Source of the DNA: an uncultured Eubacteriales bacterium
Lineage (GTDB): Bacteria; Bacillota; Clostridia; Oscillospirales; Acutalibacteraceae
Length of the DNA: 39,223 bases
Assembly: GCA_900316025.1 (NCBI GenBank)
Contig: ONBJ01000007.1
Coordinates: 1-39,223, forward strand
Reading direction: 5' to 3'
Positions 4,479 through 30,528 of the stretch are shown one piece after another. A program made the translations under genes and the position numbers. The notes under the pieces were generated by a model. The model was not told the DNA's origin. It saw only the letters and a list, made by a program, of their open reading frames with translations, and made no database searches. Within the stretch, counting starts at the first letter, position 1; each line of letters begins with the position of its first letter.

Positions 4479-4585
4479 GGTGCGACCCGCCTGACAATTT
4501 TGCAAAGGAAAATTGTCGGAAGGAATTTTTAAATTCCTTCCATAAAAAATTTTCAAAGAAAATTTTTTATACGGCGGGTCGCACC
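4479..4585. repeat. Three-armed cloverleaf inverted repeat, copy A
   Basis: A 13-bp perfect closing stem (GGTGCGACCCGCC at 4479-4491 with its complement at 4573-4585) encloses three abutting hairpins: 4493-4517 (9-bp stem, 7-base loop), 4518-4541 (11-bp stem) and 4542-4570 (12-bp stem, loop CAAAG). Only single or double bases are left unpaired at the junction. The arms are AT-rich and the outer stem GC-rich. It sits between fabF and accB in the fatty-acid operon, so it would be transcribed within the polycistronic message unless it stops or processes it. No T-run follows, so it is not a standard terminator. It shares its architecture with copies B to E, and the TGCGA of its stem with most of them. 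Confidence 0.9.
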
Positions 4586-4635
4586 TGTGAGGCGGTATAT
4601 CCATACCTTAAATAAAAAACAGGGGAATTGAAAAA

Positions 4636-5085
4636 ATGTATAATATAAATGAAATAAAGGAGCTTATACAGGCTCTTGACAATTCAAAGCTTACGGACTT
4701 GGAGATTACGGGAGAAAACGGAGAAAAGCTTTGCCTTAAAAAGAAAACAGAGAAAGCGTATTCAGCACCTGTTGTGACGGCGGCAGTTCCCACACAGGAG
4801 CTTCAGACGGAAGAAAGAGCCGCTGATGACAGCGTTAATGAAAAATCTGATGTAAGAACAATAGACTGTCCTATGGTCGGAGTATTTTATGCAGCATCAT
4901 CGCCTGATGCAGAGCCTTATGTAAGCATTGGTTCAAGAGTAAAGAAAGGCGATGTAGTTTGCATAATAGAGGCTATGAAGCTTATGAATGAGGTAGTTGC
5001 TTCTGAGAGCGGAACAGTTACCGAAGTTCTTGTCAAGAACGGAGATTTGGTTGAATTCGGACAGCCGCTTTTTGTGATAGAATAA
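4636..5085 (+). CDS. accB: Biotin carboxyl carrier protein of acetyl-CoA carboxylase
   Basis: BCCP carries CO2 on biotin between biotin carboxylase and the carboxyltransferase. The 149-residue protein has a short N-terminal dimerisation part, an Ala/Pro/Thr/Glu-rich linker (about residues 41-72), and a C-terminal biotinyl domain with the biotin-accepting Lys115 in EAMKLMNE. The start ATG at 4636 follows AGGGGAATTG. It is 50 bp after the cloverleaf repeat and 42 bp before fabZ. Standard member of the operon; it may also donate biotin to other carboxylases or decarboxylases, but that is inference. Confidence 0.95.
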   Translation: MYNINEIKELIQALDNSKLTDLEITGENGEKLCLKKKTEKAYSAPVVTAAVPTQELQTEERAADDSVNEKSDVRTIDCPMVGVFYAASSPDAEPYVSIGSRVKKGDVVCIIEAMKLMNEVVASESGTVTEVLVKNGDLVEFGQPLFVIE

Positions 5086-5127
5086 TTACCGTATTTAAAA
5101 ATATACAGCTCAGAGGTAAATAAAGAT

Positions 5128-5547
5128 ATGAATCAGGAAGAAATAAAGAAAATAATTCCGCACAGGGACAATATGCTTCTTGTTGAAGAAGCCGAAAAAA
5201 TAGACGATGTAACGGCAAAGGGAAAATACACTGTAAGGGGAGATGAATTTTTCCTCAAGGGACATTTTCCCGGAAATCCTGTAGTACCGGGTGTAATTCT
5301 CTGCGAGATGATGGCACAGGCAAGCTGTGTACTTATTTCGGGTGAAGGTGTAAAGTCCACACCATATTTTTCAAAGATGGACAATGTAAAGTTCAAGAAT
5401 AAGGTTTTGCCGGGTGACACCTTGGAAACTACCTGTACACTTACAAAGAGCAAGGGTGTATTCTATTTTATATCCGCAAAGGGATATGTAAGAGATAAGC
5501 TTTGCGTTCAGGCAGATTTTACGGTTGCGGTTATTCCTGAGGAGTAA
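5128..5547 (+). CDS. fabZ: 3-hydroxyacyl-ACP dehydratase
   Basis: Hot-dog fold dehydratase that converts 3-hydroxyacyl-ACP to trans-2-enoyl-ACP. The 139 residues are normal for FabZ. It starts with the family pattern IIPHRDNMLLVE, and the catalytic His46 is in GHFPGNPVVPGV with Glu60 in LCEMMAQ. The ATG at 5128 has AGAGGTAA upstream. Its location between accB and accC is the standard order in streptococci and Clostridia. Confidence 0.96.
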   Translation: MNQEEIKKIIPHRDNMLLVEEAEKIDDVTAKGKYTVRGDEFFLKGHFPGNPVVPGVILCEMMAQASCVLISGEGVKSTPYFSKMDNVKFKNKVLPGDTLETTCTLTKSKGVFYFISAKGYVRDKLCVQADFTVAVIPEE

Positions 5548-5590
5548 AAAAACCGCAGCTGCGTTAATCTTAATACAGTTGGGAGTGTAG

Positions 5591-6946
5591 ATGTTGTTTT
5601 CAAAGATATTGATAGCCAACCGTGGAGAAATTGCGGTAAGAATAATAAGAGCGTGCCGTGAAATGGGTATATCTACAGTAGCGATATATTCTGAGGCAGA
5701 CAAAGATGCAATGCACGTACAGCTTGCAGACGAAAGCTACTGTGTCGGCGGAGCATCTGTTTCGGAAAGCTATCTGAATATGGCTGCGATACTAACTCTG
5801 GCAGTTGCTACGGGAGCACAGGCAATCCACCCCGGATACGGGTTGCTGTCGGAAAATGCAAAGTTTGTTTCATTATGCGAACAGTGCAATATAAAGTTCA
5901 TAGGGCCTACTTCAAAAATGATAAGCCTGCTCGGTGACAAGGATACGGCGAGAAAAACGATGAGAGCGGCAGGAGTTCCCGTAACTCCCGGCTGCGATAT
6001 AGTCGAAGATTTAAGTACAGCCCGTGAAAAAGCAGCGGAAATAGGATTTCCACTGCTAATAAAGGCACGTTCGGGAGGCGGCGGAAGAGGAATAAGGCTT
6101 GTAAATTCTATGGAGGAGTTCGACAATGCCTACAATTCGGCATCAAGCGAGGCACAGTCTGCATTCGGCGATGGTGCTGTATATATGGAGAAGTTTCTCA
6201 AGCCTGTAAAGCATATAGAAATGCAGCTTCTGTGCGACAGATATGGAAACGTTATCTGTCTTGGAGAGCGTGAATGTTCTGTTCAGAGAAAAAACCAGAA
6301 GCTTATAGAGGAAAGTCCGTCCCCTGCGGTTACGCCCGACATCAGAAAAGAAATGATGGAGGCTGCCAAAAAGGCGGCACTTGCGGTAAATTACGAAAGC
6401 GTAGGAACAGTAGAATTTCTGCTCGACAGCGACAATAATTTCTATTTTATGGAAATGAATACAAGACTTCAGGTTGAACACCCTGTTACGGAGATGGTAA
6501 CGGGACTGGATTTGGTTCAGTGGCAGATAAGAATTGCCGCAGGAGCTATTCTTACAATAACGCAGGACAGGGTTTTTATTCACGGACACGCTATAGAGTG
6601 CAGAATAAATGCCGAAAATCCCGATGAAAACTTCCGTCCGTCATGCGGAACAATAACGAAGCTGCATATTCCCGGAGGTCCTTCCGTAAGGTTTGATACT
6701 GCGATATATCAGGATTATTCCATACCGCCGTATTATGACTCTATGATAGGAAAGCTGATAGTTCAGGCACGTACAAGGGATTACGCAATAAGGAAAATGA
6801 AGATGGCTCTCAGTGAGCTTAATATTCACGGAGTTGAGCATAACAGAAATCTGCAGATTGATATTTTGTCCGACAGGAAATTTGTGGACGGTACTTATAC
6901 TACAGATTTTATGGAAAATCGTGAAAATAATAAAAAGATAAAGTAA
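5591..6946 (+). CDS. accC: Biotin carboxylase subunit of acetyl-CoA carboxylase
   Basis: ATP-grasp enzyme that carboxylates biotin on AccB using bicarbonate and ATP. The 451-residue length equals the family's norm for a stand-alone subunit. Visible are the N-terminal KILIANRGEIAVRIIRACRE, the glycine-rich ATP lid SGGGGRGIR, the ECSVQRKNQKLIEESPSP region and the metal and active-site stretch EMNTRLQVEHPVTE. The start is ATG 5591 with GGGAGTG close upstream. The gene is followed by accD after 49 bp. Confidence 0.97.
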   Translation: MLFSKILIANRGEIAVRIIRACREMGISTVAIYSEADKDAMHVQLADESYCVGGASVSESYLNMAAILTLAVATGAQAIHPGYGLLSENAKFVSLCEQCNIKFIGPTSKMISLLGDKDTARKTMRAAGVPVTPGCDIVEDLSTAREKAAEIGFPLLIKARSGGGGRGIRLVNSMEEFDNAYNSASSEAQSAFGDGAVYMEKFLKPVKHIEMQLLCDRYGNVICLGERECSVQRKNQKLIEESPSPAVTPDIRKEMMEAAKKAALAVNYESVGTVEFLLDSDNNFYFMEMNTRLQVEHPVTEMVTGLDLVQWQIRIAAGAILTITQDRVFIHGHAIECRINAENPDENFRPSCGTITKLHIPGGPSVRFDTAIYQDYSIPPYYDSMIGKLIVQARTRDYAIRKMKMALSELNIHGVEHNRNLQIDILSDRKFVDGTYTTDFMENRENNKKIK

Positions 6947-6995
6947 ATAATATTTGATACATATTATTTATATGATATAGATTGGATTGTGGATT

Positions 6996-7898
6996 ATGTT
7001 TAACAGTGATTTTTTTACGTTCCTAAAGCCTAAAAACGAGCTTGAAAATATACCGTCCGACAAATTGTCAGGTGAGAACAAGCCGTATATTCCCGATTCG
7101 CTTCTGATAAAGTGTCCCGAATGCAAGAAAATGCTGCTTGTATCGGATTTGAACGAAAACAGCAAGGTATGTATTCACTGCGGACACCATTTCAGGATAA
7201 ATGCAAGGCGTAGAATTGAGCTGATTGCCGATGAAGGTTCGTTCGAGGAGAAAAATCAGGAAATGACCTCAAAGAATATTATAGGTTTTCCCGATTACAA
7301 CAGAAAGCTTGCCACGGCGAAAAACAGAAGCGGCGAAAATGAATCGGTTATCACGGGAGTATGTACCGTAAACGGATACAGAACGGTTGTATTTGCTATG
7401 GAATCAGGCTTTATGATGGGTTCAATGGGAACGGTTACAGGCGAGAAAATTACAAGAGCGTTTGAATATGCAACAGAACACAGGCTTCCCGTAATAGCGT
7501 TTACAGTGTCGGGAGGAGCAAGAATGCAGGAGGGTGTTCTGTCGCTTATGCAGATGGCAAAGACAAGCGGTGCTGTAAAGCGTCACAGCGATGCAGGATT
7601 GCTGTATATAACTGTTCTTACAGACCCCACTACGGGAGGAGTTACCGCAAGCTTCGCTATGGAGGGAGATATAATATTATCCGAACCCGGAGCATTGGTA
7701 GCTTTTGCAGGACCGAGAGTAATAGAACAGACTATAAGACAGAAGCTTCCCAAGGACTTTCAGACTGCTGAATTTCTGCAGGACAAGGGATTTGTCGATG
7801 CTGTAGTTGACCGCCGTGAGATGAAAAAGATACTTTCGGACTTGCTGTTTATGCACGGCATTGAAAAGACTGAAAACAAGGAGGACGAGGTTAAATGA
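6996..7898 (+). CDS. accD: Acetyl-CoA carboxylase carboxyltransferase subunit beta
   Basis: Half of the carboxyltransferase that moves CO2 from carboxybiotin to acetyl-CoA. Counting from the ATG at 6996, a four-Cys zinc ribbon is visible (Cys40, Cys43, Cys59, Cys62), followed by the crotonase-fold core with SGGARMQEG and the GPRVIEQTIRQKLP region. An in-frame TTG at 6987 could add three residues; the ATG is preferred because the family usually begins with a short MF... segment. The ribosome site is weak. The stop overlaps the accA start as ATGA (7895-7898), so the two subunits are probably translationally coupled, fitting their equal stoichiometry. Confidence 0.95.
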   Translation: MFNSDFFTFLKPKNELENIPSDKLSGENKPYIPDSLLIKCPECKKMLLVSDLNENSKVCIHCGHHFRINARRRIELIADEGSFEEKNQEMTSKNIIGFPDYNRKLATAKNRSGENESVITGVCTVNGYRTVVFAMESGFMMGSMGTVTGEKITRAFEYATEHRLPVIAFTVSGGARMQEGVLSLMQMAKTSGAVKRHSDAGLLYITVLTDPTTGGVTASFAMEGDIILSEPGALVAFAGPRVIEQTIRQKLPKDFQTAEFLQDKGFVDAVVDRREMKKILSDLLFMHGIEKTENKEDEVK

Positions 7899-8722
7899 GA
7901 GCGTTTGACAGGGTTACTGCGGCAAGAGCGGCAGACAGACTTACTGCGTCTGACTTTATAAAGGCATTGTTCGGAGATACATTTTTCGAGCTTCACGGTG
8001 ACAGAAGATATGCCGATGATAAGGCAATCAAGGCAGGTATAGGAATGCTTGGAGATATGCCTGTTACGGTAATAGGTCTTGACAAGGGAAAAAATACCAG
8101 AGAGAGAGTTGAGAAAAACTTCGGAGCAGCTCACCCCGAAGGATACAGAAAAGCGTTAAGGCTTATGAAGCAGGCTGAGAAATTCAGACGACCTGTTCTG
8201 TGTCTTGTAGATACAAGCGGAGCATTCTGCGGAATAGGTGCAGAGGAAAGAGGTCAGGGACAGGCTATAGCAGAAAACCTTATGGAGATGATGACGCTTA
8301 AAACTCCGATACTTTCTATATTTATCGGAGAAGGCGGAAGCGGCGGAGCGTTGGCACTTGCAGTAGCAAACGAGGTATGGATGCTTGAAAATGCCGTATA
8401 TTCTGTAATATCGCCTGAGGGCTGTGCAAGCATACTGTGGAAAGACCCTGAAAAAATGGCAGATGCAGCACAATGTTTAAGACTTACAGCTAATGACCTT
8501 TTCACAATGGAGGTTATCGAAAGGATTATAAGAGAACCTAAGTCGGCAGACAATCCTATTTTTGACAGCCTCAGAAACCTCATAGTAAATACGTTCAATA
8601 AATATATGAATATGAGCGATGATGAGCTTCTCGAACAAAGGTATAAACGCTTCAGAAAGTACGGAAGAACAACCAAGGTTTTCAGCTTTGGTGACAGCAA
8701 AGAGGAAGCAAAGGAAAATTAA
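7895..8722 (+). CDS. accA: Acetyl-CoA carboxylase carboxyltransferase subunit alpha
   Basis: Partner of AccD in the alpha2-beta2 carboxyltransferase. At 275 residues it is shorter than the E. coli protein, because the N-terminal helical extension is reduced. Hallmarks are FFELHGDRRYADDKAI, the HPEGYRKALRLM helix, DTSGAFCG, and the oxyanion-hole glycine stretch FIGEGGSGGALALA followed by SPEGCASILWKD. It is the last gene of the operon; a strong hairpin lies 20 bp after the stop. Confidence 0.95.
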   Translation: MRAFDRVTAARAADRLTASDFIKALFGDTFFELHGDRRYADDKAIKAGIGMLGDMPVTVIGLDKGKNTRERVEKNFGAAHPEGYRKALRLMKQAEKFRRPVLCLVDTSGAFCGIGAEERGQGQAIAENLMEMMTLKTPILSIFIGEGGSGGALALAVANEVWMLENAVYSVISPEGCASILWKDPEKMADAAQCLRLTANDLFTMEVIERIIREPKSADNPIFDSLRNLIVNTFNKYMNMSDDELLEQRYKRFRKYGRTTKVFSFGDSKEEAKEN

Positions 8723-8741
8723 ATATATTTATATTGAAAAT

Positions 8742-8784
8742 AAAAAGACATTGAGTTATTTGTAATTATACTCAATGTCTTTTT
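8742..8784. terminator. Bidirectional intrinsic terminator after accA / ypeB
   Basis: A 15-bp perfect stem (8742-8756 with 8770-8784) begins with five A and ends in a run of six T, so it has the tail needed on both strands. It separates the + strand fatty-acid operon from the convergent gene at 8814-10163. Confidence 0.9.
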
Positions 8785-8813
8785 TATAAAATTTAAATGG
8801 TGATTTTATTTTG

Positions 8814-10163
8814 TTACATAACAAGCGTTCCGCCGTCGCTCTGGAGAAGTATATAAATCTGTTCTTCCATAGCGGTTCGGGCATTTATATAGACAAGAAC
8901 ATTTTCGTTATCCTTGCCCTTGCACTTGAACTCATAACAAAGAACTTCCTTTCCGTTCTGCATAGGGATAAGTGCTTTCTGTGAGGAAATTATATCAAGC
9001 TCACTGCTTACGCTTTCACAAGCCTTTTGTTCTGATATTAAGTTGTTTTCCGTATTCCTTTCGGTATGGTTCATAATATAACCCTCTGCATTATAGATTA
9101 CGACATCTCCTGTAACAGTCGAAACACCAACCTTTATCAAATCGCCGTAACAAATAATATCGTTCTGACTGTAAGCAAAGTTTATTGTGCATACCGAATT
9201 GTGAATAACATAATAGCTGTCCTTCATATCATATACTTTTTGACGCTTTAAGAAATCTTCTGCTTTCTGAAGAGTTTCTTTATATTTGATTTTGCTGTCA
9301 TCTGACGGATAATCCGTATTGTATACCTCGCATACATAACCTCCTTTTACCGTGACAGTACCGTAAAGATTATCACCATCAAAGACATATACAGGTAAAA
9401 CTCCTTTTCTTTTTTCTCTGTAGGTTATTTCACGGTAATCCCTGTTTACGAAATCAGCAAGAATTTTTTGTGCCTGCTGAGCGGAACATTCCTTTGAATT
9501 TTCTGTAAACTTTGGCTTTTTCTGCTGAACACTGTCCGCAAAAGGGCCGTCATAAATAAGGCTTGGATAGTCAACAAAGCTTTTGCTTACTGTCAGAAAG
9601 CTGTTGTCAAAGCTCGATTTCTGATTAGGTTCTGTATCTGAACCGAAGTTGCTTTTTAAAGCAACGGCATTTCCGATATTTTCTTCACCATCTCCGAATT
9701 TTGCCGAAAGCTCCTCTATTTTGGGGGCGATATTGTCAGCATATTCGGAAAGCTTTTTAAGTGCGGATTTGTTATCCTTACTCAGTGTTTCATTTCTTGA
9801 GAGCTTTCCTATCGAAAATGAAGCGAAATCTCCGACCTGAGTCAAATATTTCTGAATACCCTCGCCGTCATTCTGTGAAACAGGAAGCTGGCTCAGTGCA
9901 TTTTTTGCACCCTCAGCCTCAACCATAAGCTTGGACGCAAGTCCGTACTGCTGGGGAGGGGTATTTGCGTATGAGCTTTTTTCAAGTGTCGTTTTTATGG
10001 ACGAGCAGTAATCCGAAAGCTGACTTAGTGACCTCTGGTATGAATACTGTGTTCTGGTACGATAGTTTTCAGCCATATTGAAGCCTACTATGCCTGCTCC
10101 GAATATGACAAGTACAGATGCACTTATATAGCTTATAAGCTTTACTCTGGCTCTTAATCTCAT
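8814..10163 (-). CDS. ypeB: Spore germination protein YpeB
   Basis: YpeB is needed for the stability and localisation of the cortex-lytic enzyme SleB in spores (known from Bacillus). The 449-residue protein matches in layout: an N-terminal membrane segment (about residues 9-28), a helical N-domain with the family-like phrases SYQRSLSQLSDYCSS, YANTPPQQYGLASKL and KNALSQLPVSQ, and C-terminal PepSY-type repeats. The start is the ATG complement at 10161-10163 with GGAGGTT upstream. No sleB is adjacent on either side, although the two often form an operon; it may lie elsewhere. The upstream side holds copy B of the cloverleaf repeat. Confidence 0.88.
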   Translation of the reverse strand: MRLRARVKLISYISASVLVIFGAGIVGFNMAENYRTRTQYSYQRSLSQLSDYCSSIKTTLEKSSYANTPPQQYGLASKLMVEAEGAKNALSQLPVSQNDGEGIQKYLTQVGDFASFSIGKLSRNETLSKDNKSALKKLSEYADNIAPKIEELSAKFGDGEENIGNAVALKSNFGSDTEPNQKSSFDNSFLTVSKSFVDYPSLIYDGPFADSVQQKKPKFTENSKECSAQQAQKILADFVNRDYREITYREKRKGVLPVYVFDGDNLYGTVTVKGGYVCEVYNTDYPSDDSKIKYKETLQKAEDFLKRQKVYDMKDSYYVIHNSVCTINFAYSQNDIICYGDLIKVGVSTVTGDVVIYNAEGYIMNHTERNTENNLISEQKACESVSSELDIISSQKALIPMQNGKEVLCYEFKCKGKDNENVLVYINARTAMEEQIYILLQSDGGTLVM

Positions 10164-10275
10164 TTTATATAAACCTCCGTTTAATACTTTCAGTGTTAAT
10201 ATTTACATAAAATTCGGATTTATTACCGAAAAATTTCTGCACATACTTTTTGTTTGCAGAATGTACTCCGGCAGT

Positions 10276-10368
10276 GCGATTGCAGACCACGGCAGCATTT
10301 GCTGCCGTGAAATTCAAAGCAAGGCTTTGAATTTGACAAAAGCTTCAGCTTTTGTCGTCTGCAATCGC
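10276..10368. repeat. Three-armed cloverleaf inverted repeat, copy B
   Basis: Closing stem GCGATTGCAGAC (10276-10287) pairs perfectly over 12 bp with 10357-10368. Inside are three hairpins with no unpaired base between them: 10288-10309 (10 bp, 2-base loop), 10310-10334 (11 bp, 3-base loop) and 10335-10356 (10 bp, 2-base loop). The stem can extend imperfectly outward, TACTCCGG at 10264-10271 against CCTGAGCGTA at 10371-10380. The element fills much of the 421-bp divergent gap between ypeB and the yqzL-like gene; the rest holds one likely promoter and otherwise nothing I recognise. The closing stem and right flank match copy D nearly base for base, while the arms differ. Confidence 0.93.
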
Positions 10369-10406
10369 ATCCTGAGCGTAGCCGTAAGTATTTTTTAAAT
10401 ATCATA

Positions 10407-10435
10407 TTGACGCTGATATTTTTATTGTATATATT
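10407..10435 (+). promoter_or_regulatory. Sigma-A-type promoter, likely for yqzL-like gene and recO
   Basis: TTGACG (10407-10412), a 17-bp spacer and TATATT (10430-10435). Transcription would start near 10442 and give a leader of about 140 bases before the ATG at 10585. It begins just outside copy B of the cloverleaf repeat. Confidence 0.6.
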
Positions 10436-10584
10436 ATTGGTATGGAGTGCCGCAGAAAATGTAATTATTTATTCCGAAAATTACACCCGATATTTCCGCA
10501 GATAATGAGCAATACTGTAAATATAAGCTATTGTGAAATCATATAGTTGTAATTGAGATTATTTATGCAGAGGTGTGTAATGAT

Positions 10585-13449: not shown

Positions 13450-13483
13450 ACATATTTATGACATAAAAACATAAAGTTTAGGT

Positions 13484-13556
13484 CAAGCCTTTTCAAAGGC
13501 TTGCGGTTTCCAAAGGCAGAGCCTTTGGTGGGATTTTTAAGGGCAACGCCCTTAAA
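13484..13556. repeat. Tandem block of three short hairpins
   Basis: Three consecutive inverted repeats: 13484-13503 (9-bp stem, 2-base loop), 13510-13528 (8-bp stem, loop AGA) and 13536-13556 (9-bp stem, loop AAC). They are spaced by 6-7 unpaired bases, and there is no convincing closing stem, so this is not a cloverleaf copy. From memory, similar purine/pyrimidine hairpin blocks are common between genes of gut Firmicutes; that is recall, not a search. Confidence 0.7.
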
Positions 13557-13569
13557 CTCACAGTTATTC

Positions 13570-13610: not shown

Positions 13611-13672
13611 GATAATTCTGCAAAAACAGGACAAAATATAATTAAATAAACTTTTGCAAAAGGGTGATTTTT

Positions 13673-14017
13673 ATGAGCAGAAGGGTTAATGCCTTTGTAA
13701 CTATGGCATTTATTATGTTTATGTCGGCTGCCGTAATATCTACATTTTTAAGCTGTCAGAGAAATGACAGTGCTTCTGCACATACACCTACCGAAGAACC
13801 TACAGCAAGCTCAGATACCACAGTATACAGAACGTATGTTGTCAGAGAATATAACGGTATGGTGGCTGTCTTTGAAAAAGGAAACTCCAAGCCCTTAAAG
13901 GTAACCGCAAGATGTGTTTCAGCGTTGCCAGAAGAGGACAGGTTCAGACTTGTAAGTGGTATAGAAGCTGTTTCTGATACCAAGCTTAAAAGACTGCTGG
14001 AGGATTTGTGTAGCTGA
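13673..14017 (+). CDS. Small exported/anchored protein, BofC C-domain-like
   Basis: A 114-residue protein with an N-terminal hydrophobic segment (about residues 8-27) that ends LSC, which could be a membrane anchor or a lipobox-like site, then a Ser/Thr-rich linker and a small domain reading YVVREYNGMVAVFEKG ... ALPEEDRFRLVSGIEA ... LKRLLEDL. This pattern resembles the C-terminal domain of BofC, an intercompartmental sporulation checkpoint protein of Bacillus, and widespread Clostridial small proteins of the same type. ATG 13673 is chosen over the in-frame GTG at 13664, which lies within the ribosome-site region AAAGGGTGA. The following genes are spore-related, which fits. Function is inference. 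Confidence 0.6.
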   Translation: MSRRVNAFVTMAFIMFMSAAVISTFLSCQRNDSASAHTPTEEPTASSDTTVYRTYVVREYNGMVAVFEKGNSKPLKVTARCVSALPEEDRFRLVSGIEAVSDTKLKRLLEDLCS

Positions 14018-14044: not shown

Positions 14045-14183
14045 GAGGTCGTGCGGTTCGCTGCGGTGCGATTTCAACATCAAAATACAAAGTATTTTGA
14101 TGCAAAAAGTGCTGAAGCACTTTTTGGCTTCGTGACCTTGTTCACGAAGCTTGAAATCGCACCGCAGCAAACCGCACAACCTC
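14045..14183. repeat. Three-armed cloverleaf inverted repeat, copy C (longest stem)
   Basis: The closing stem is 33 bp (14045-14077 with 14151-14183) with only two mismatches, which would be G.U pairs in a minus-strand transcript. It encloses three hairpins with no bases between them: 14078-14102 (11 bp, 3-base loop), 14103-14126 (11 bp, 2-base loop) and 14127-14150 (9 bp, 6-base loop). The inner end of the stem is TGCGATTTCAA, matching the GCGATTkCA core of copies B, D and E. It occupies most of the 257-bp gap between the BofC-like gene and the DUF421 gene. A short ORF across it is an artefact of the repeat. Confidence 0.93.
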
Positions 14184-24600: not shown

Positions 24601-25194
24601 TCGGACGGTGACAGGGCGGTCGTTCTGGGAGTTCTTTCAAACGTAAAGCTCCGTACCACAAAAAATAATCAGACTATGGCAACTGCCGTTATAGAGGACA
24701 GGAGCGGAAGTATAGAGATTATGGTATTTCCGCAGGTATTCGACAAAAGCGGAAGGCTTTTGTCAGACGGAAGCGTAGTAAAAATTACAGGTACAGTGAG
24801 TATGCGTGAGGACGAAAAGGTAAAGCTTTTATGCAACGATGTAATGAGCATAAAGCAGCTTTCTCAGGAGATTAAAAACAATAAATCCGATGAAGGCAGA
24901 CGTTCACGAAGTACCGAAACAAATACCGAAGAAAAAAACAAATCAGACAATATATATGACAACAGAAACAAAACACATCTTCTGTATATCAGAATTGATA
25001 ATCTTCAAAGCGAAAAATTTAAGAAAGTAAGAAATCTGCTTGAAATATTTGACGGAAATACTCAGGTTGTTTTCAGACTTACGGATACAGGAAAAAAGGT
25101 ATCTGCCCCGAGAAATCTTTGGGTTATGCTTAATGAACCGCTTGTCAGAGAGCTTAAATACATACTTGGAGATGAAAATGTTTTTGTACGGTGA
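21643..25194 (+). CDS. dnaE: DNA polymerase III alpha subunit (DnaE)
   Basis: Replicative C-family polymerase; in Firmicutes it extends primers before PolC takes over. From ATG 21643 it has 1183 residues. The PHP domain opens HLHIHSEYSLLDGA and VTDHGNMYAAVDFY; catalytic aspartates lie in PDFDIDFC (about residues 396-402); the palm and fingers contain GPGRGSGAGSLAAY and YRPGPMDSIPKFIENRH; an OB-fold follows near the C-terminus (VLSNVKLRTTKNN). GAGGGTG lies eight bases before the ATG. The earlier in-frame Met overlaps whiA and is rejected. The length is typical for DnaE1 and no exonuclease domain is inserted, so it is not PolC. Confidence 0.97.
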   Translation: MSFVHLHIHSEYSLLDGACRIDRLIDKVKEYGGNAVAVTDHGNMYAAVDFYKEALKKGIKPIIGCEVYVASGSRLKKIGSGERKNYHLILLCQNNTGYQNLIKLVSKGWTEGFYGKPRIDRELLEEYHEGLICLSACLAGEIPQDILAGDYDRAKKTACYYRELFGENNFYIELQNHNLREQLIVLPQLIRLSRETGIPLVATNDCHYINKEDSELHSILLCIQTNHTINDPNKIEFGTNEFYVKSEDEMREIFAEVPEAVDNTQLIADRCNVSFEFGKTKLPHFDVPDNQNHFEYFKNQCYKGLYEKYGRNPEKSLTERLDYELGIVNQMGYVDYYLIVNDFIQYAKRHSIPVGPGRGSGAGSLAAYCIGITGIDPIKYNLIFERFLNPERVSMPDFDIDFCTERRQEVIDYVVRKYGKEHVAQIVTFGTMAARGAVRDVARAMAVSYSAADAVAKLIPNELHITLKKALEASKELKSRYDTDSTIHKLIDTAAAIEGTPRHASKHAAGVVITEKPVNEYVPLAKNDDAVVTQYTMTTLEELGLLKMDFLGLRNLTVINDAETMIKASNPNYSEAEIDERDKKTFSMLSHGYSEGVFQFESGGMKNMLIQLKPESVEDLIAAISLYRPGPMDSIPKFIENRHNPDKVTYKHPLLKNILDVTYGCIVYQEQVMQIFRDMAGYSLGRADIVRRAMSKKKKDVMERERDIFINGLTDENGNVEVDGCLRRGVSKKIAEEIFSEMESFASYAFNKSHAAAYANVSYRTAWLKCHYPCEYMAALLTSVLDNFGKLAVYTEECARLNIKVLPPHVNHSMKSFTVDGKNIRFGLVAVKNIGKSFIDDIISERENGEFTSFYDFCKRMYGSNMNSRALESLVKCGAFDGMGNNRREMVNSLKTVMESCERDYKRNITGQMSFFDDIIEQQDNPVNQLVASADDFSVPEKLAMEKEITGMYLSGHPVDQYSDIIKRIKPDKIIGICDADENKKYSDGDRAVVLGVLSNVKLRTTKNNQTMATAVIEDRSGSIEIMVFPQVFDKSGRLLSDGSVVKITGTVSMREDEKVKLLCNDVMSIKQLSQEIKNNKSDEGRRSRSTETNTEEKNKSDNIYDNRNKTHLLYIRIDNLQSEKFKKVRNLLEIFDGNTQVVFRLTDTGKKVSAPRNLWVMLNEPLVRELKYILGDENVFVR

Positions 25195-25232
25195 GATTAA
25201 GAAATAAATTACAAAAGGAGAGATATATACCT

Positions 25233-25442
25233 ATGGCTGTAGATTTAGAGGGCGTGATAAGAGTTTTCTGCCTTGTAAGCGGAGCATCTATGCTTCTTAC
25301 AGGAATTTTAAGACTTATTTTTTCTCTGCGTGGCGATGCATCAAGAAAAAAGGATATTGTTCCTGCATTGGTATCATTAATTATGGGAGTTCTTGTAATA
25401 TTATTGCTGCCGACGCTCATTATGATGATGATTTTCAAGTAG
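25233..25442 (+). CDS. Small two-helix membrane protein, unknown
   Basis: A 69-residue protein with two hydrophobic helices (about residues 7-29 and 41-66) joined by a basic loop (RGDASRKKD). The ATG at 25233 follows AAAAGGAGAG; a longer form from 25191 overlaps the dnaE stop and is less likely. It lies 38 bp after dnaE and before the pfkA promoter. I do not recognise the family. Confidence 0.65.
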   Translation: MAVDLEGVIRVFCLVSGASMLLTGILRLIFSLRGDASRKKDIVPALVSLIMGVLVILLLPTLIMMMIFK

Positions 25443-25510
25443 CATTTATAACGCATATTTTTATTCGGCAGATATCTGAATAATATTTACATATCTTTTT
25501 GAAAAAAGAC

Positions 25511-25539
25511 TTGAAAATTATGGCGAATATAACTATAAT
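25511..25539 (+). promoter_or_regulatory. Sigma-A-type promoter of pfkA
   Basis: TTGAAA (25511-25516), exactly 17 bp, TATAAT (25534-25539), giving a leader of about 35 bases to the GGGGGGC ribosome site and ATG 25581. Confidence 0.8.
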
Positions 25540-25580
25540 ATAGATTAGGTAATATTTAGACAATTATTGGGGGGCTTAAA

Positions 25581-26549
25581 ATGTCAGAAAAAGCTATAGC
25601 AGTGTTGACAAGCGGCGGCGATGCACCGGGAATGAATGCGGCTGTCCGTGCTGTTGCACGAGCTGCTTTGTGCAAAGGAATGAGAGTTATAGGAGTTCGC
25701 AGAGGTTACAACGGACTTCTTAACGGTGATGTCTTTGAGATGAATCTTCGTTCCGTATCAGATATTATTCACAGAGGCGGTACTGTTCTTTATACTGCAA
25801 GAAGTGAGGAGTATAACACTCCCGCAGGTGTGAAGAAGGCTGCTGATACGTGCAGAGAGCTTGGTGTATCAGGTGTTGTTGTTATCGGCGGAGATGGTTC
25901 TTTCCGTGGAGCAAGAGATTTGACAGGTCAGGGAATACTTTGTGTAGGTATCCCCGGAACTATAGACAATGACATAGCTTGCAGTGAGTATACTGTAGGT
26001 TTTGATACTGCTATGAATACCGCTATGGATATGATAGACCATATACGTGATACGGCTCAGTCACACGACAGATGCAGCGTAATAGAGGTTATGGGCAGAC
26101 GCTGCGGCGATATTGCTCTCCAGACAGGTATAGCTGTCGGTGCAACCGCAATACTCGTTCCTGAAAAAGAGTATGACCTCGAAAAAGATATTATACAGAG
26201 AATGATTGCAACTCAGAAAACAGGCAAGAAGCACTTTATAGTTATCGTAGCAGAGGGTGTAGGCGGTTCTGCCGAAATCGCAAGGCGTATAGAGGAAAGA
26301 ACCGGTGTTGAAACCAGACTTACTGTTCTGGGTCATGTTCAGCGTGGCGGTATGCCTACACTGAGAGACAGAGTTGTTGCAAGTGCTATGGGTCATAAGG
26401 CTGTCGAGCTTCTTTCAAACGGCATAGGCAACAGGGTCGTTGCTATGACTAACGGAAAGATAGTAGACTATGATATTACTGAGGCTCTCAATATGGAGAG
26501 AGTGTTCGATAATGAGCTTTATCAGCTTGCTCTTGACATATCAATATAA
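25581..26549 (+). CDS. pfkA: ATP-dependent 6-phosphofructokinase
   Basis: Phosphorylates fructose 6-phosphate in glycolysis. The 322-residue length is standard for bacterial PfkA. Visible are GGDAPGMNAAVRA (12-24), the ATP-type GGDGSF (103-108; a PPi enzyme would carry Asp after GGD), catalytic GTIDNDI (126-132), the substrate-binding MGRRCGDIA, and GHVQRGG near the C-terminus. It has its own promoter and is followed by about 150 bases without visible signals, then a long hairpin and a cloverleaf repeat. Confidence 0.97.
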   Translation: MSEKAIAVLTSGGDAPGMNAAVRAVARAALCKGMRVIGVRRGYNGLLNGDVFEMNLRSVSDIIHRGGTVLYTARSEEYNTPAGVKKAADTCRELGVSGVVVIGGDGSFRGARDLTGQGILCVGIPGTIDNDIACSEYTVGFDTAMNTAMDMIDHIRDTAQSHDRCSVIEVMGRRCGDIALQTGIAVGATAILVPEKEYDLEKDIIQRMIATQKTGKKHFIVIVAEGVGGSAEIARRIEERTGVETRLTVLGHVQRGGMPTLRDRVVASAMGHKAVELLSNGIGNRVVAMTNGKIVDYDITEALNMERVFDNELYQLALDISI

Positions 26550-26697
26550 CTGATTATTTTCTTATTTCTGCAATTTGAAACGCTCTTTTAAACGTAAACA
26601 CGGATTGGATTTGACCGTTCTTAAGGTCTGCGGTTTATGATTGAAAGTTCCGCATATAGTATTGTCCTGTAGCTTTGCGTTGATGGGAACGTTTGGT

Positions 26698-26751
26698 ATA
26701 AAACAGCGGAGGGGGAAGTCTTTTTAAAGACTTCCCCCTCCGCTGTTTTAT
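26698..26751. terminator. Perfect 26-bp hairpin between convergent pfkA and DUF1275 genes
   Basis: 26698-26723 pairs without mismatch with 26726-26751 across a two-base loop. The stem has a G/C-rich centre (GCGGAGGGGGAAG) and A/T ends, so a T tract is present on either strand. It lies 150 bp after the pfkA stop and is a likely bidirectional terminator, though much longer than needed. The 398-bp gap 26550-26947 holds only this and cloverleaf copy D. Confidence 0.8.
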
Positions 26752-26788
26752 CAAAATATATAAATACCATACCTCCGTGTACGCTTAT

Positions 26789-26884
26789 GCGATTGCAGAC
26801 GGCAAAAGCGTTCGCTTTTGCCAAATTGCAAGGTATACCTTGCAATTTCGTTTCAGACATTTGTCTGAAACGGTCTGCAATCGC
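26789..26884. repeat. Three-armed cloverleaf inverted repeat, copy D
   Basis: Closing stem GCGATTGCAGAC (26789-26800) pairs perfectly with 26873-26884 and is identical to copy B. Three hairpins fill the interior without a single unpaired base between them: 26801-26822 (10 bp, loop TT), 26823-26848 (a perfect 26-base palindrome) and 26849-26872 (11 bp, loop TT). The right flank CCTGAGCGTAG (26887-26897) is shared with copy B and pairs imperfectly with TACGCT at 26780-26785. It lies between the convergent pfkA and DUF1275 genes. Confidence 0.94.
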
Positions 26885-26947
26885 AGCCTGAGCGTAGATA
26901 CAGAGCTGAATTTAAATCACTGAAATTTAAAAAGCTTTGCAGAAAGC

Positions 26948-27601
26948 TTATGCTTTCTGTTTTTTGGCTTTCCCGAATGATACAAGTATAAAAGCACTTG
27001 TTATGGGAATAAGTACAATGAAAATACAGTTTTTTCCTATAAAAAGAGAGCCTGTAACAGCTATTAAAGCTCCGAAATGATAACTAAGCAGAGTAAGTCC
27101 GTAAAATTTTGCTTTTTTCAGCATAGCCTTTTCTTTGCTGAAAACAAATTCGGTTAATGAGGTTGAAAACTGTCTGAAATTATTAGTGGAAAATATACAG
27201 GAGCTTGCAAATCCGAAAGCTCCCGGAAAAGCTGTCCACTGAAATGCCATAGAAAAAAACAGTGGATATGTATAGAAGCTGTTTTCTACATTGGAAGGCA
27301 TAAAAGCAATAGCCGCAACAGACAGGGTATTAAATATAAGTGACAGATATTTAAGGTTTATTCTGCTGTAATGAGGAATGATAACTGAAAGACTAAGTCC
27401 TGAAAAATATACAATAAGTCCTGCCATACGCAGAAAAAAAGACAGGAAATCACCTCTTGCAATATCGTTTATAATTTTTATCATATTGGTAGTCTGTGCG
27501 TTTGCAAATACATCACAAAAGCTGATTATAGCGAAACACCCGAAAAAACCTCCGATTATCGACATATTGAAATGCGTATATGCCTCTGTATGTGCCTGCA
27601 T
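26948..27601 (-). CDS. DUF1275 (YoaK-family) membrane protein
   Basis: A 217-residue membrane protein with about six hydrophobic segments. The phrases IIGGFFGCFAIISFCDVFANAQTTN near the start and a later FASSCIFSTNNFRQFSTSLT match the DUF1275/YoaK pattern of an N-terminal helix with NaQT.N and a central NNlRQ. Function of the family is unknown. The ATG complement at 27599-27601 has AAAAGAGGG upstream and a clear promoter further out. The gene converges on pfkA. Confidence 0.8.
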   Translation of the reverse strand: MQAHTEAYTHFNMSIIGGFFGCFAIISFCDVFANAQTTNMIKIINDIARGDFLSFFLRMAGLIVYFSGLSLSVIIPHYSRINLKYLSLIFNTLSVAAIAFMPSNVENSFYTYPLFFSMAFQWTAFPGAFGFASSCIFSTNNFRQFSTSLTEFVFSKEKAMLKKAKFYGLTLLSYHFGALIAVTGSLFIGKNCIFIVLIPITSAFILVSFGKAKKQKA

Positions 27602-27625
27602 AAAATCCCTCTTTTCCGTTAAAAG

Positions 27626-27654
27626 ATTATATCATTTAAGAAATCTGTTGTAAA
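27626..27654 (-). promoter_or_regulatory. Sigma-A-type promoter of the DUF1275 gene
   Basis: On the minus strand TTTACA (27649-27654), a 17-bp spacer and TATAAT (27626-27631), about 25 bp before the start codon. On the + strand a TATAAT at 27806-27811 may serve the divergent HAD gene but its -35 (TTTATT, 27783-27788) is weak. Confidence 0.7.
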
Positions 27655-27882
27655 CTTAAAAATATAACATACATAATGCGGGATTTTAATACATTAATGT
27701 ACATTTTTCTGCAATAGTAATAATAGTTACAGATAAAATCTTTTTTATCAATAATATAACAAAACTTTAATAATAAAATGTATTTATTCTGACGGTGTTT
27801 TATGATATAATCATCGGGAAAGGCTGTAAAAGGTCGGAATATGTATTATAGAAATTTTCATCAGAACGGGAGAAATCATATT

Positions 27883-28611
27883 ATGTACAAAAACTATCTT
27901 TTTGATTTATACGGAACGCTGGTTGATATAAATACAAATGAATGGAAAAGCTATCTCTGGAAAAAGATGTCTGAGCTCTACGGCTTTGAAGGTGCATTTT
28001 ACTCAGCCGCAGAACTTAAAAAGGCATATTTCGAGGAAGTGGAAAGAGAAAAGGAAATGGTAAGAATAAAAAATCCCGTATATGAGCATATTGACATAAG
28101 AATAGAGAATGTATTTGATAATCTGCTGAAATTCAAGGGGATAGAAGTTCCTGACGGCTTCGGAGAATATACGTCAAAGATATTCAGAATAATATCAACT
28201 AAATATATAAAGCTGTATAACGGAGCGGAGGAACTGCTTACTGCTCTGAGAGAAGCAGGAAAAAATGTTTATCTGCTTACAAATGCACAGAGAAGCTTTA
28301 CTGTTCCCGAACTTAAATTTCTCGGGTTATATGATAAGTTTGACGGCATAGTAATATCATCGGACGAATATGTCAGCAAGCCTGATAAGGAGTTTTATAA
28401 TATAATTATCGACAGATATTCCCTCAAAAGAAACGAAACAATAATGATAGGCAACGACTGTACAACAGATATAGAGGGTTCGTATAATGCAGGGCTGGAT
28501 TCCCTTTATATACACAGCAATATATCGCCCGAAGTAAGGGGAGAACTTAAAAGTAGATTCAGCGTTATGGACGGAGATGTAAAAAAAATAAAAGATATGA
28601 TTATAAAGTAA
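27883..28611 (+). CDS. HAD-superfamily hydrolase (YjjG/haloacid-dehalogenase-like)
   Basis: A 242-residue HAD hydrolase with motif I FDLYGTLVD (nucleophile Asp8), motif II LLTNAQ, motif III Lys in SKPDKEFYN and motif IV IGNDCTTDIEGSYNAG, plus a helical C1 cap between motifs I and II. The second Asp of the usual DxD is Tyr10, as in haloacid dehalogenases, although Clostridial members of this clade are generally annotated as phosphatases. ATG 27883 with CGGGAGA is preferred to the in-frame ATG 27841. Substrate unknown. Confidence 0.85.
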   Translation: MYKNYLFDLYGTLVDINTNEWKSYLWKKMSELYGFEGAFYSAAELKKAYFEEVEREKEMVRIKNPVYEHIDIRIENVFDNLLKFKGIEVPDGFGEYTSKIFRIISTKYIKLYNGAEELLTALREAGKNVYLLTNAQRSFTVPELKFLGLYDKFDGIVISSDEYVSKPDKEFYNIIIDRYSLKRNETIMIGNDCTTDIEGSYNAGLDSLYIHSNISPEVRGELKSRFSVMDGDVKKIKDMIIK

Positions 28612-28651
28612 ATTTCTTCCAAGAATATTTGTGGAAAGGAATGTGATTTGA

Positions 28652-30394
28652 TTGAAGCTTGAAAATTCAAAAAAAAGACTGTTGGTAATTATCGGAGTTT
28701 GTGTGGCAGTTCTTTTGGCGGGAACGGGAATATTCTATGCAGTCAGCGGCGGTACGTTTGATATTACAAGGCTTGCAAATTCAAATGTCGAGGGAGAAAC
28801 AAGACCGACCGAAAAGCCGAAGCCTACTGAACCCGATAAACCTGAACTGGAAGCAAGTATTTCAGCTCAGACCCTGAATTTAGTCGAAAATCAGACTGCA
28901 CAGATTAAAGCTGAACTCAAAAACAAGGAAAAAAGCAAATATAATGTACGTTATACCACATCAGACGAAAATATCGCCGCCATAGATACAAAGGGAAAAA
29001 TTACTCCGATGAGCAAGGGCGAATGTCAGGTAGGGGTTTATGTGGAAGGATATGATACTTCTATAAAGAACTTCAATATAAAGGTGGAAGATTATCGTAT
29101 AGACCAGATAAGTATGCTGAGCTCGTATGTTTTCGGACTTAGTACAAAGGAGGCATATACCTACGCAGGAAACAGAAAGGGTAATGCAAAAATTACAGGC
29201 TGCAAAATAGATGATTTTGACGGTGACGGAAATTATGAGCTTTTTATAAAATATAATCTGTCAAATAAACTGCAAAAAATATTTGTTGTAACTTCATACG
29301 GAGATGGCTACACTGTCCACCAGTCGGAAAAAAGCTTCAGCGATATAGCAGGAGGCGGCTATGCAAGCTATATTGAGGACGTTTACAAAGATGCAAACGG
29401 CGGTATAAGCATAATAGCAGAGTCAACAAAGGCGGACGCTGTATTCTCGGAAAAAATTACGGCTTTGTATTCAGTTAACGGAACAATGGAAAAACAGGCT
29501 GAATACTACTGCAAAGAACCTTTTAATCTTACAGATATGGGTAAGAAGTCTGAGTATAAAATAGATAAAGTAAAGAAAGAGCGTGATGAATTTACATTGC
29601 TCTATACATCCCTGAAATCTTCAAGAGAGATTTTCGACAATTATATAACAATAACAGCGAAGCTTTCACAGGGCAACTATGTAAAAGCCGAACTTCCGTC
29701 CAATATAGGACAGGCATACTATAACAGACTTCAGTGGACAACAACAGATGACGGAGTTGCAAAGGTAAGCAATTCGGGAATGATTACAGGCGGAAGCAAA
29801 GCAGGAAACTGTGAAATTACAGGCTTTATTCCCGGTATGACAGTTCCGCTTTGCAAAATGACAATAGAAGCCAGCAATGTTACAGATGATTTTGAAAGCT
29901 ATGTGGAATCCATACAGGGCAGCGAAATAATGGGTCAGGCAGGCAACAGAATGAAGCTCTACGGATATTATGTAACCGATATTGACAGCGACGGTATTTC
30001 GGATTTGCTGCTTTATTATGTCGGAGGAAACGGCTGTCAGCTTGAAGCTGCACACTATATAGGTTCTCAGGTAAGCCGAAAGGTAATAAAGAGTGTTGTT
30101 ACCGAAAACGGTACAAGCTGCCTTCTCGATTTGTACAATGACAGTATGAACGGAAATGCTCTGGTTTTATATGTTGGAAAAATGACAAAGACAAACTCTT
30201 CACTGACAACGGATTTTCACTATGAAACTTATGAGAACGGCGAATTTACCGATATTAATTCAAGTCAGTATACGGTTATTTCTTCAGACTCCAATAAAAA
30301 TGAGTGCAAGGTTGCAGGCGAAAAGGTTGAAGAAGATGATTTCAATACTATGCTTAACAGATATGTGAAAATGGGAAGCTGGCATCTGGTATAG
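28652..30394 (+). CDS. Membrane-anchored protein with duplicated Ig-like and DxDxDG modules
   Basis: A 580-residue protein with an N-terminal transmembrane anchor (about 9-31), a Pro/Thr/Lys linker (50-65) and an internal duplication. Each half has a BIG2-type Ig-like domain (TTSDENIAAIDTKGKITPM near 102-120; TTTDDGVAKVSNSGMITGG near 363-381), then a segment with AGNR followed by a Ca2+-loop-like motif (DFDGDG at 188-193; DIDSDG at 443-448) and Leu/Tyr-rich strands. It is probably exposed on the cell surface and may bind polymers or calcium; this is inference. TTG 28652 is the start, with GGAAAGGAATG upstream. The gene ends 37 bp before cloverleaf copy E. Confidence 0.75.
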   Translation: MKLENSKKRLLVIIGVCVAVLLAGTGIFYAVSGGTFDITRLANSNVEGETRPTEKPKPTEPDKPELEASISAQTLNLVENQTAQIKAELKNKEKSKYNVRYTTSDENIAAIDTKGKITPMSKGECQVGVYVEGYDTSIKNFNIKVEDYRIDQISMLSSYVFGLSTKEAYTYAGNRKGNAKITGCKIDDFDGDGNYELFIKYNLSNKLQKIFVVTSYGDGYTVHQSEKSFSDIAGGGYASYIEDVYKDANGGISIIAESTKADAVFSEKITALYSVNGTMEKQAEYYCKEPFNLTDMGKKSEYKIDKVKKERDEFTLLYTSLKSSREIFDNYITITAKLSQGNYVKAELPSNIGQAYYNRLQWTTTDDGVAKVSNSGMITGGSKAGNCEITGFIPGMTVPLCKMTIEASNVTDDFESYVESIQGSEIMGQAGNRMKLYGYYVTDIDSDGISDLLLYYVGGNGCQLEAAHYIGSQVSRKVIKSVVTENGTSCLLDLYNDSMNGNALVLYVGKMTKTNSSLTTDFHYETYENGEFTDINSSQYTVISSDSNKNECKVAGEKVEEDDFNTMLNRYVKMGSWHLV

Positions 30395-30430
30395 AACTTT
30401 GGGAAACTGCATTTTTCAGGTATGCACATA

Positions 30431-30528
30431 AGGCGATTTCAGAAACAGCAGATTTCATCTGCTGTTTGCGGCAGACAGTATGTCTGCCTTCATAAACAGA
30501 CTTCGTCTGTTTATGTCTGAAATCGCCT
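30431..30528. repeat. Three-armed cloverleaf inverted repeat, copy E
   Basis: Closing stem AGGCGATTTCAGA (30431-30443) pairs perfectly over 13 bp with 30516-30528. Inside are hairpins 30444-30466 (10 bp, loop of 3), 30470-30488 (8 bp, loop GTA) and 30491-30515 (11 bp, loop TTC), with two or three unpaired bases around the middle arm. The stem core GCGATTTCA equals that of copy C. It lies between the Ig-like gene and the next HAD gene, both on the + strand; no T-run follows. Confidence 0.9.

What the first reader, a model, noticed from the sequence alone, without database searches (positions are those of the whole stretch)
4479..30528. Family of five three-armed cloverleaf (four-way-junction) intergenic elements
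Seen directly: five intergenic elements (4479-4585, 10276-10368, 14045-14183, 26789-26884, 30431-30528) each have a 12-33 bp closing stem enclosing exactly three hairpins of 8-13 bp with loops of 0-7 bases. In B, C and D no base is left unpaired at the junction. The distance inside the closing stem is nearly constant (69-80 bases). Four copies share the stem core GCGATTkCA (B, C, D, E) and A shares TGCGA. Arms share almost no sequence between copies yet always pair. A mobile family copied as sequence would keep arm sequence; loss of sequence with pairing kept implies selection on, or a copying mechanism using, the structure. At one per ~8 kb there could be hundreds per genome (inference). I cannot name a described family with this layout. 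Candidate roles: cruciform bound by junction or nucleoid proteins, ssDNA substrate of a Y1 (RAYT-like) transposase, or a processed RNA.
Basis: partly seen in the sequence, partly recalled or inferred. Interest (0 to 1): 0.9.

Follow-up and report, generated by a model that had tools for sequence, protein, structure and literature searches.

The report
Three-hairpin DNA repeats in rumen bacteria
Two related uncultured gut bacteria each carry about 150 or more copies of a roughly 100-letter repeat that folds into three near-perfect hairpins on one closing stem, and the folding is kept while the letters change, so it looks like an old mobile DNA element whose folded shape still matters.

Summary
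All five elements fold as described. A strict pattern finds 153 copies in this genome and 160 in one congener, 0 for the reversed pattern. A structure-only scanner finds 145 three-arm junctions in 1.16 Mb of the two genomes; with equal limits it finds 2 separate two-arm and 0 four-arm ones.

A second genus (G127) has the layout with other sequence.

Of 24 copies whose place was found in the congener, 21 are intact there. Paired positions differ by 5.0%, flanks by 15.8%, four-fold sites (window genes only) by 33%, loop tips by 43%. Compensated pairs: 32 against 2.4 expected.

Tests disfavour ordinary RNA pairing: almost no G·U, no G·U route in compensations, little strand preference. No Y1 transposase found. 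Placement after stop codons is shared by an unrelated repeat. The three element-rich genomes lack recognisable SbcCD; four congeners have SbcC: suggestive only.

Best reading: an old MITE-like family whose folded core is maintained as DNA. New variant of a known kind.

The parts
4479..4585 (.). Element A: closing stem 4479-4491/4573-4585; arms 4493-4517, 4518-4541, 4542-4570; between fabF (3220-4452) and accB (4636-5085)
   Evidence: fold; scanner; intact orthologue in G005 (L154); G004 has 40 nt in the same fabF-accB gap; Pfam
10275..10369 (.). Element B: closing stem 10275-10287/10357-10369; arms 10288-10309, 10310-10334, 10335-10356; between divergent ypeB and recO
   Evidence: orthologue in G005; Pfam
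14045..14183 (.). Element C: 33-bp closing stem 14045-14077/14151-14183 (two mismatches); arms 14078-14102, 14103-14126, 14127-14150; starts 27 nt after the stop of ORF 13664-14017, before a DUF421 gene
   Evidence: orthologue in G005 with a strongly co-varied outer stem
26788..26885 (.). Element D: closing stem 26788-26800/26873-26885; arms 26801-26822, 26823-26848, 26849-26872; between convergent pfk and DUF1275 genes
   Evidence: identical copy at the orthologous place in G005 (L156 2845-2942)
30431..30528 (.). Element E: closing stem 30431-30442/30517-30528; arms 30443-30467, 30470-30488, 30491-30515; between a Big_2 gene and a HAD hydrolase gene
   Evidence: orthologue in G005 with compensated arms; no junction in the orthologous G004 stretch

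Best explanation
These are copies of one old, MITE-like (non-autonomous, once dispersed) intergenic DNA repeat. Its core is a closing stem with consensus GCGATTGCAG(A/C)C carrying three near-perfect hairpin arms; about a third of the copies also keep a decayed end word near TGAGCGAAGCCGCAGGCT just outside the core. SHOWN: common ancestry of the copies, dispersal mostly before the two species split, and strong constraint on pairing in the core while loop tips change faster than the flanks. INFERRED: what is maintained is the folded DNA (hairpins or cruciform on either strand) rather than one transcript strand, because stems are near-perfect Watson-Crick with almost no G·U, compensations do not pass preferentially through G·U, and loops and orientation show little strand preference. 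INFERRED and weaker: the element thrives where the host lacks the hairpin nuclease SbcCD. What the folded DNA does, and which enzyme dispersed it, is not known. My working model is a once-mobile element whose folded core is either still used by the host (a junction or nucleoid site, or a roadblock) or repaired arm against arm, with selection needed on top, because paired sites change about three times more slowly than the flanks.
For: 153 and 160 strict copies, 0 in the reversed control. 145 three-arm junctions against 2 two-arm and 0 four-arm with equal limits. Shared arm repertoire. End word within 5 of 18 letters beside 51 of 145 copies, against 2 of 145 random places. Of 24 G000 copies whose place in G005 was found, 21 intact, 1 decayed, 2 absent. 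In the reverse direction 2 of 22 G005 copies lack an intact partner: one is a single perfect hairpin, one is deleted with a remnant. In one of the two absences G005 keeps half a stem core. Orthologues are closer than any sampled same-genome copy in 19 of 21. Paired positions 97/1926 = 5.0% divergent, flank 280/1776 = 15.8%, four-fold sites 438/1328 = 33%, tips 66/153 = 43%. Compensated pairs 32 against 2.4 expected; 10 of 32 are of transition type, against 61.0% for rRNA in PMC8794818 (section 8 read), binomial p = 0.0008. G·U 2 of 4231 pairs on the mRNA strand, against 11 of 604 in terminator-like hairpins of the same stretches (p = 7e-9). Orientation relative to genes 39:34. SbcD not found in G000, G005 and G127 but over cut-off in G001, G003 and G004; SbcC strong in G001-G004, one 20-bit hit in G000, none in G005 and G127. 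Same layout in another genus.
Against: SbcD is below cut-off in 90 of 150 genomes sampled from the family, so its absence in three may be coincidence; G013, G014 and G021 also lack it, and their small sampled stretches hold no junction. Hairpin density outside the elements does not follow SbcCD. G003 has SbcCD and one copy. No target-site duplication, clean insertion or parent transposon was seen. Outer stems are only slightly more frequent than in mismatched flanks (>=7: 34 against 23 of 145). The scanner prefers near-perfect helices, so the G·U count is biased low; a relaxed search added 16 candidates, of which I judge six to be members by inspection. At helix ends of orthologue pairs the oriented non-standard cells are G·U 4, A·C 2, i.e. 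not against RNA there. Loops lean slightly to purines on the mRNA strand, 130:101. The pairs used for the compensation count were those intact in both species. No expression or in vivo structure data.
Confidence: 0.5

Rival explanations
1. RNA-level element: the cloverleaf in the 3' UTR or between genes of an operon protects, processes or attenuates mRNA, as proposed for other intergenic repeats, and pairing is selected in the transcript.
For: 93 of 121 classified copies lie between tandem genes and 10 between divergent ones (22 further copies overlap mechanical ORFs and 2 were unclassified); in the 93 tandem gaps the median is 33 nt after the stop, closer to the stop in 74; G127 copies are similar; element A lies in the fabF-accB gap; repeats of B. 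cereus are often part of transcripts (PMC3446304, passages read).
Against: An unrelated repeat family in the same stretches has similar placement (46 tandem, 19 convergent, 5 divergent; median 36 nt after the stop), so placement only shows tolerance. G·U is nearly absent, compensations show no G·U route, loops on the mRNA strand are 130 purine-rich against 101 pyrimidine-rich and GNRA/GNA 24 against 18 complements, orientation is 39:34.
Confidence: 0.25
2. Mutation alone: template switching or arm-against-arm correction during replication keeps hairpins perfect without selection.
For: Template switching can create and maintain hairpins (PMC8794818, abstract and section 8 read); tips are hypervariable; an extended closing stem turned over with pairing nearly kept (L140 14921 against L177 12280).
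Against: Correction without bias should let pairs change at the flank rate, but paired sites change about three times more slowly. Compensations are isolated (adjacent doublets 1 against 0.9 expected) and exact loop inversions (5) are not above control (3.65).
Confidence: 0.12
3. Still-active MITE or REP-like element moved by a Y1 (RAYT) or other transposase that recognises the fold.
For: 16 same-genome pairs at 90% identity or more whose flanks are unrelated apart from the end word, all in G005; the end word within two mismatches lies beside cores only: 12 beside listed cores and 1 beside a further core.
Against: No PF01797 in G000 or G005 (G127 not tested); no PF00078 reverse transcriptase in G000, G005 or G127; of the four places without an intact or decayed three-arm copy in one species, two read as deletions, one as a reduction to one hairpin, one could not be read.
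Confidence: 0.09
4. Transcription terminators.
For: T-rich stretch 12-40 nt beyond the core downstream in 32 of 93 tandem copies (and on the other strand upstream in 33); mild T/A enrichment 20-25 nt outside the core on both sides.
Against: T-rich stretch within 12 nt after the core in 4 of 93; the enrichment is the same on both sides, so not tied to transcript direction; element A lies between fabF and accB, which in G004 are 40 nt apart.
Confidence: 0.04

Closest known systems
BOX, RUP and SPRITE repeats of Streptococcus pneumoniae (PMC3049150, passages read)
   Same: Short, strongly folded intergenic repeats in many copies, proliferated in the past with slow present movement, nearly confined to closely related species.
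   Different: No three-arm junction is described in the passages that I read; SPRITE is terminator-like. Sequence comparison with BOX was not made.
REP/BIME elements with RAYT (Y1) transposases (PMC3733652, search listing and abstract start only; the RAYT link is recalled)
   Same: Palindromic, intergenic repeats.
   Different: REPs are 20-40 bp palindromes (PMC3733652 listing); here about 95 bp or more with three arms, and no Y1 transposase in the two element-rich congeners.
bcr1-bcr18 repeats of the Bacillus cereus group (PMC3446304, passages read)
   Same: Intergenic repeats, bcr1-bcr3 MITE-like, bcr10 and bcr18 with conserved secondary structure, often in UTRs.
   Different: No sequence comparison made here; no three-arm layout in the passages read.
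Stem-loop families surveyed by PMC2267715 (passages read)
   Same: Repeat families, some foldable on both strands; single or double hairpins.
   Different: 'cloverleaf', 'multi-branched' and 'three hairpins' occur 0 times in its text.

Membership tests
MITE | short, many copies, no coding capacity | tested here: met
   core about 95 bp; 153 and 160 strict copies; 121 of 145 outside mechanical ORFs and classified, 22 overlap one
MITE | terminal inverted repeats | tested here: inconclusive
   flank consensus with 42-61% per position in 109 oriented copies; end word within 5 mismatches beside 51 of 145, random 2 of 145; outer stem barely above control
MITE | target-site duplication at an empty site | tested here: inconclusive
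   two of the empty-like places look like deletions, one could not be read
MITE | parent transposon with the same ends | tested here: inconclusive
   end word only beside cores in 1.16 Mb of sampled stretches; the rest of the genomes not searched for it
REP/RAYT | Y1 transposase in the genome | tested here: not met
   PF01797 0 matches in G000 and G005; 3 in G001, 1 in G002
REP/RAYT | single 20-40 bp palindrome | tested here: not met
   three arms on a closing stem, about 95 bp
REP/RAYT | GTAG or CGTC tag | not tested
   tags not searched for
Known structured RNA (Rfam 15) | match at gathering score | tested here: not met
   0 matches in the window; only sub-threshold matches in 26700-30600
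Structured RNA in general | G·U tolerated more than other mismatches | tested here: not met
   G·U 2, A·C 4 of 4231 pairs; oriented orthologue cells: inner G·U 0, A·C 3; helix ends G·U 4, A·C 2
Intrinsic terminator | T run directly after the stem on the transcript strand | tested here: not met
   4 of 93 within 12 nt of the core; 32 of 93 further out, equal on both sides
BOX | boxA-boxB-boxC modules | not tested
   no sequence comparison made

The most novel reading that the evidence does not exclude
A repeat kept under selection as folded DNA: a three-hairpin cruciform whose layout, not its sequence, is shared between two genera, and which persists in genomes that have lost the SbcCD hairpin nuclease, with hairpin tips acting as mutation hot spots because the structure really extrudes in the cell.
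Probability: 0.25. Interest if true: 0.85.

Novelty: new variant of a known kind. Interest (0 to 1): 0.62.

Why it matters
Whether folded DNA as such (rather than a protein site or a transcript) can be selected in chromosomes is, to my knowledge, an open question. Here are about 150 natural copies per genome in two congeneric species, with congeners that nearly lack them and that have SbcCD, so the question becomes directly testable by comparison and by simple knock-outs in laboratory strains. It is also a warning for RNA searches: covariation in bacterial intergenic repeats need not mean RNA.

Tried and rejected
Loop inversion as a footprint of template switching looked striking by eye but is not above control (5 exact against 3.65 expected, 519 of 2000 controls reach it). 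Block-wise compensation: not seen. Outer terminal inverted repeat: clear in a few copies, barely above mismatched flanks overall. SbcCD loss raising hairpins in general: not seen. Y1 transposase (G000, G005) and reverse transcriptase (G000, G005, G127): none. Placement after stop codons as evidence of RNA function: rejected, because the second repeat family shows much the same. R3 matches in nine further genomes of the family were not confirmed as this layout by the scanner in eight; in the ninth, G118, the match lies in a 178-base structure with a 43-bp stem that the scanner does read as three-armed but with 9 unpaired bases and other sequence; I did not pursue it. Model R2 had too few pairs and was not used. 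The single pattern hits in G014 and G053 do not match R1. Literature: the searches listed no paper that I recognised as describing this layout; most subscription journals are not held, and I read passages, not whole papers.
Full report
What is there. No Rfam family reaches its gathering score in the window. The window is contig 12 of an unnamed 2.08 Mb, 98-contig genome, G000.

Copy number and layout. The pattern GCGATTKCA-N58..88-TGMAATCGC occurs 153 times in G000 and not once read backwards. Of 79 genomes searched (G000 included), 5 match: G000 153, G005 of the same genus 160, and one each in G003, G014 and G053; the last two do not fit covariance model R1. Contig lengths identify G005 with ONDU01, isolate RUG213 (inference). 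I wrote a scanner that uses structure only. In the first 397,889 bases it finds 49 three-arm junctions, 0 two-arm, 0 four-arm and 4 one-arm structures, and 0 three-arm in shuffled sequence of 11 of the 21 sources. With more stretches and relaxed limits it finds 63 in 610,758 bases of G000 and 82 in 549,623 bases of G005; 75 of the 145 leave no base unpaired at the junction. With the same relaxed limits there are, separate from these, 16 one-arm, 2 two-arm and 0 four-arm structures. The stretches were partly chosen for holding pattern hits, so density should be taken from the pattern counts. Model R1 agrees (260 matches over both strands at E <= 0.01 in 64 sources).

One family, not five unrelated folds. 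Oriented by arm type, the copies share arm words: an outer arm mostly around CAAAAGC, the other outer arm around TTTCGGAC, CGGCAGC or TTGCGGA, and a middle arm around TTCAAGC, AAAGTGC or TTAAAGG (139 copies). Sixteen same-genome pairs, all in G005, are 90% or more identical, with flanks unrelated apart from an end word; this is dispersal rather than segmental duplication. In 109 oriented copies one flank has a consensus AGccTGaGcg.AgcCGcA with 42-61% agreement per position. Beside 51 of 145 copies the word TGAGCGAAGCCGCAGGCT is found within 5 mismatches, against 2 of 145 random places. Within two mismatches it occurs beside cores only: 12 beside listed cores, and the one other beside a further core. 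A matching outer stem is retained in few copies.

Another genus. Searching 150 genomes of the family with R1 gives matches in G000 and G127 only (G005 was not in that sample, and at most 27 candidates per genome were scored). G127 elements have the same layout with their own sequences: 16 junctions in three stretches of 20 kb chosen for hits (one of the 16 at the score limit) and 0 in shuffled sequence, while 17 other stretches from G001, G004 and 13 further genomes hold none. A further 39 stretches (572,887 bases, five of them wholly masked) hold only the one known G003 copy. A model built from G127 alone (R3) finds G000 copies, including element A at E = 2e-7. In 398 genomes R3 matches 12: G127, G000 and G005 are confirmed; eight of the other nine show no junction in the scanner, and one (G118) lies in a different, long-stemmed structure that I did not pursue.

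Age and maintenance. For 24 of the 63 sampled G000 copies the place in the sampled part of G005 was found: 21 hold an intact copy, 1 a decayed one, 2 none; two more had one flank only and the rest no match in the sampled part. All five window copies are among the 21. In the reverse direction 2 of 22 G005 copies lack an intact partner: one is a single perfect hairpin in G000, one is deleted with a remnant. In one of the two absences in G005 half a stem core remains; the other could not be read. Orthologues are closer to each other than to any sampled copy of the same genome in 19 of 21 cases. So most dispersal predates the split.

Constraint. Over the 21 pairs of orthologues, 963 base pairs compare as 900 unchanged, 32 changed on both sides with pairing kept, 29 changed on one side and 2 otherwise; 25 touching gaps were left out. 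If sides changed independently, 2.4 double and 92 single changes would be expected. Paired positions differ by 5.0%, the flank within 60 nt (cut at the gene where genes were called, 40 nt otherwise) by 15.8% (280 of 1776), four-fold sites of 11 window genes by 33% (438 of 1328) and codon positions 1+2 by 4.4% (303 of 6918). Unpaired positions overall differ in 79 of 189; loop tips of equal length in 66 of 153 (43%), and tips change length in 11 of 61 arms. Tips therefore change faster than the flanks (p = 4e-14) and paired sites more slowly (p = 5e-28, computed with 96 instead of 97 changed sites). The pairs were those intact in both species, which favours constraint; the retention of 21 of 24 copies does not depend on that choice. 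The four-fold figure comes from window genes only, whereas some other loci have flanks 95% identical.

RNA or DNA. On the mRNA strand of 93 copies between tandem genes there are 2 G·U, 4 A·C and 6 other mismatches among 4231 pairs; terminator-like hairpins in the same stretches, found with the same hairpin routine, have 11 G·U, 5 A·C and 9 others among 604. Of 32 compensations 10 are of the A-T/G-C type that can pass through G·U, about the one third expected without preference, against 61.0% of instantaneous compensations in rRNA (PMC8794818, section 8; p = 0.0008). In orthologue pairs the oriented non-standard cells are G·U 0 and A·C 3 inside helices, G·U 4 and A·C 2 at helix ends. Loops on the mRNA strand are 130 purine-rich and 101 pyrimidine-rich, a slight lean, and the element's orientation relative to genes is 39:34. 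This fits structure kept as DNA, or on both strands, better than structure kept in one transcript. It is not proof: the scanner favours perfect helices, although a relaxed search added only 16 candidates, six of them members by my inspection.

Placement. Of 121 classified copies 93 lie between tandem, 18 between convergent and 10 between divergent genes; 22 more overlap a mechanical ORF. In tandem gaps the median distance is 33 nt from the stop before and 65 nt to the start after. By itself this would suggest a 3' UTR function, but a second repeat family in the same stretches (76 copies) shows much the same: 46 tandem, 19 convergent, 5 divergent, 6 overlapping, medians 36 and 86 nt. In the fabF-accB gap G000 and G005 have element A, G004 has 40 nt with neither, and G001 has what looks by eye like the second repeat. 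Such gaps seem simply to tolerate insertions.

Machinery. No Y1 transposase in G000 or G005 and no PF00078 reverse transcriptase in G000, G005 or G127. SbcCD, which cleaves hairpins (PMC6265447, abstract start in the listing), gives a contrast. SbcD is not found in G000, G005 and G127 but is over cut-off in the congeners G001, G003 and G004; among ten further genera four are over cut-off, three have weak hits and three none. SbcC matches at E 1e-42 or better in G001-G004 (in G002 as two pieces), at 20 bits in G000, and not in G005 and G127; no genome reached that model's curated cut-off. Against reading too much into this, SbcD is over cut-off in only 60 of 150 genomes sampled from the family, and general hairpin density does not follow SbcCD. 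In G004 the sbcD-sbcC pair directly follows the orthologue of the window's HAD gene 30575-31243, which in the window is followed by other genes, so a breakpoint lies close to element E.

Verdict. A real, abundant, lineage-specific repeat family with an unusually regular three-hairpin core. It resembles MITE-type repeats in dispersal and placement; membership is unproven because neither a parent transposon nor a target duplication was seen. The surprising part is the strict maintenance of a largely strand-symmetric fold. The cause (selection on folded DNA, a host use, or correction plus selection) is inferred, not shown.

Noticed in passing
window 13473-13559: A second repeat family of about 87 bp with three hairpins and no long closing stem (read by eye), with matches in all five other genus members searched; 76 copies in the fetched G000 and G005 stretches, median identity 86.5%. 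It shares the placement after stop codons.
   Followed up: partly
window 31243-31385: In congener G004 the genes sbcD and sbcC directly follow the orthologue of the HAD gene 30575-31243; in the window other genes follow, and in this genome SbcD was not found and SbcC only as one 20-bit hit.
   Followed up: partly
window 26698-26751: A 26-bp perfect hairpin with AT-rich ends beside pfk, possibly a terminator shared by the convergent genes.
   Followed up: no
L156 2943-5813 (G005): About 2.9 kb present in G005 directly beside the orthologue of element D and absent from the window.
   Followed up: no
L140 14921-15045 and L177 12280-12397: At one orthologous place the outer part of the closing stem has different sequence in the two species, nearly or fully paired in each.
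   Followed up: partly
L304 3445-3529 (G003): The single G003 copy begins 9 nt after an ORF's stop codon, in a genome that has SbcCD.
   Followed up: partly
L257 (IMG/VR): A contig listed as viral carries three copies with arms identical to those of G000 contig 24, so it is probably chromosomal.
   Followed up: partly
L268 1417-1594 (G118): A 178-base structure with a 43-bp stem that the scanner reads as three-armed, with 9 unpaired bases and other sequence.
   Followed up: no
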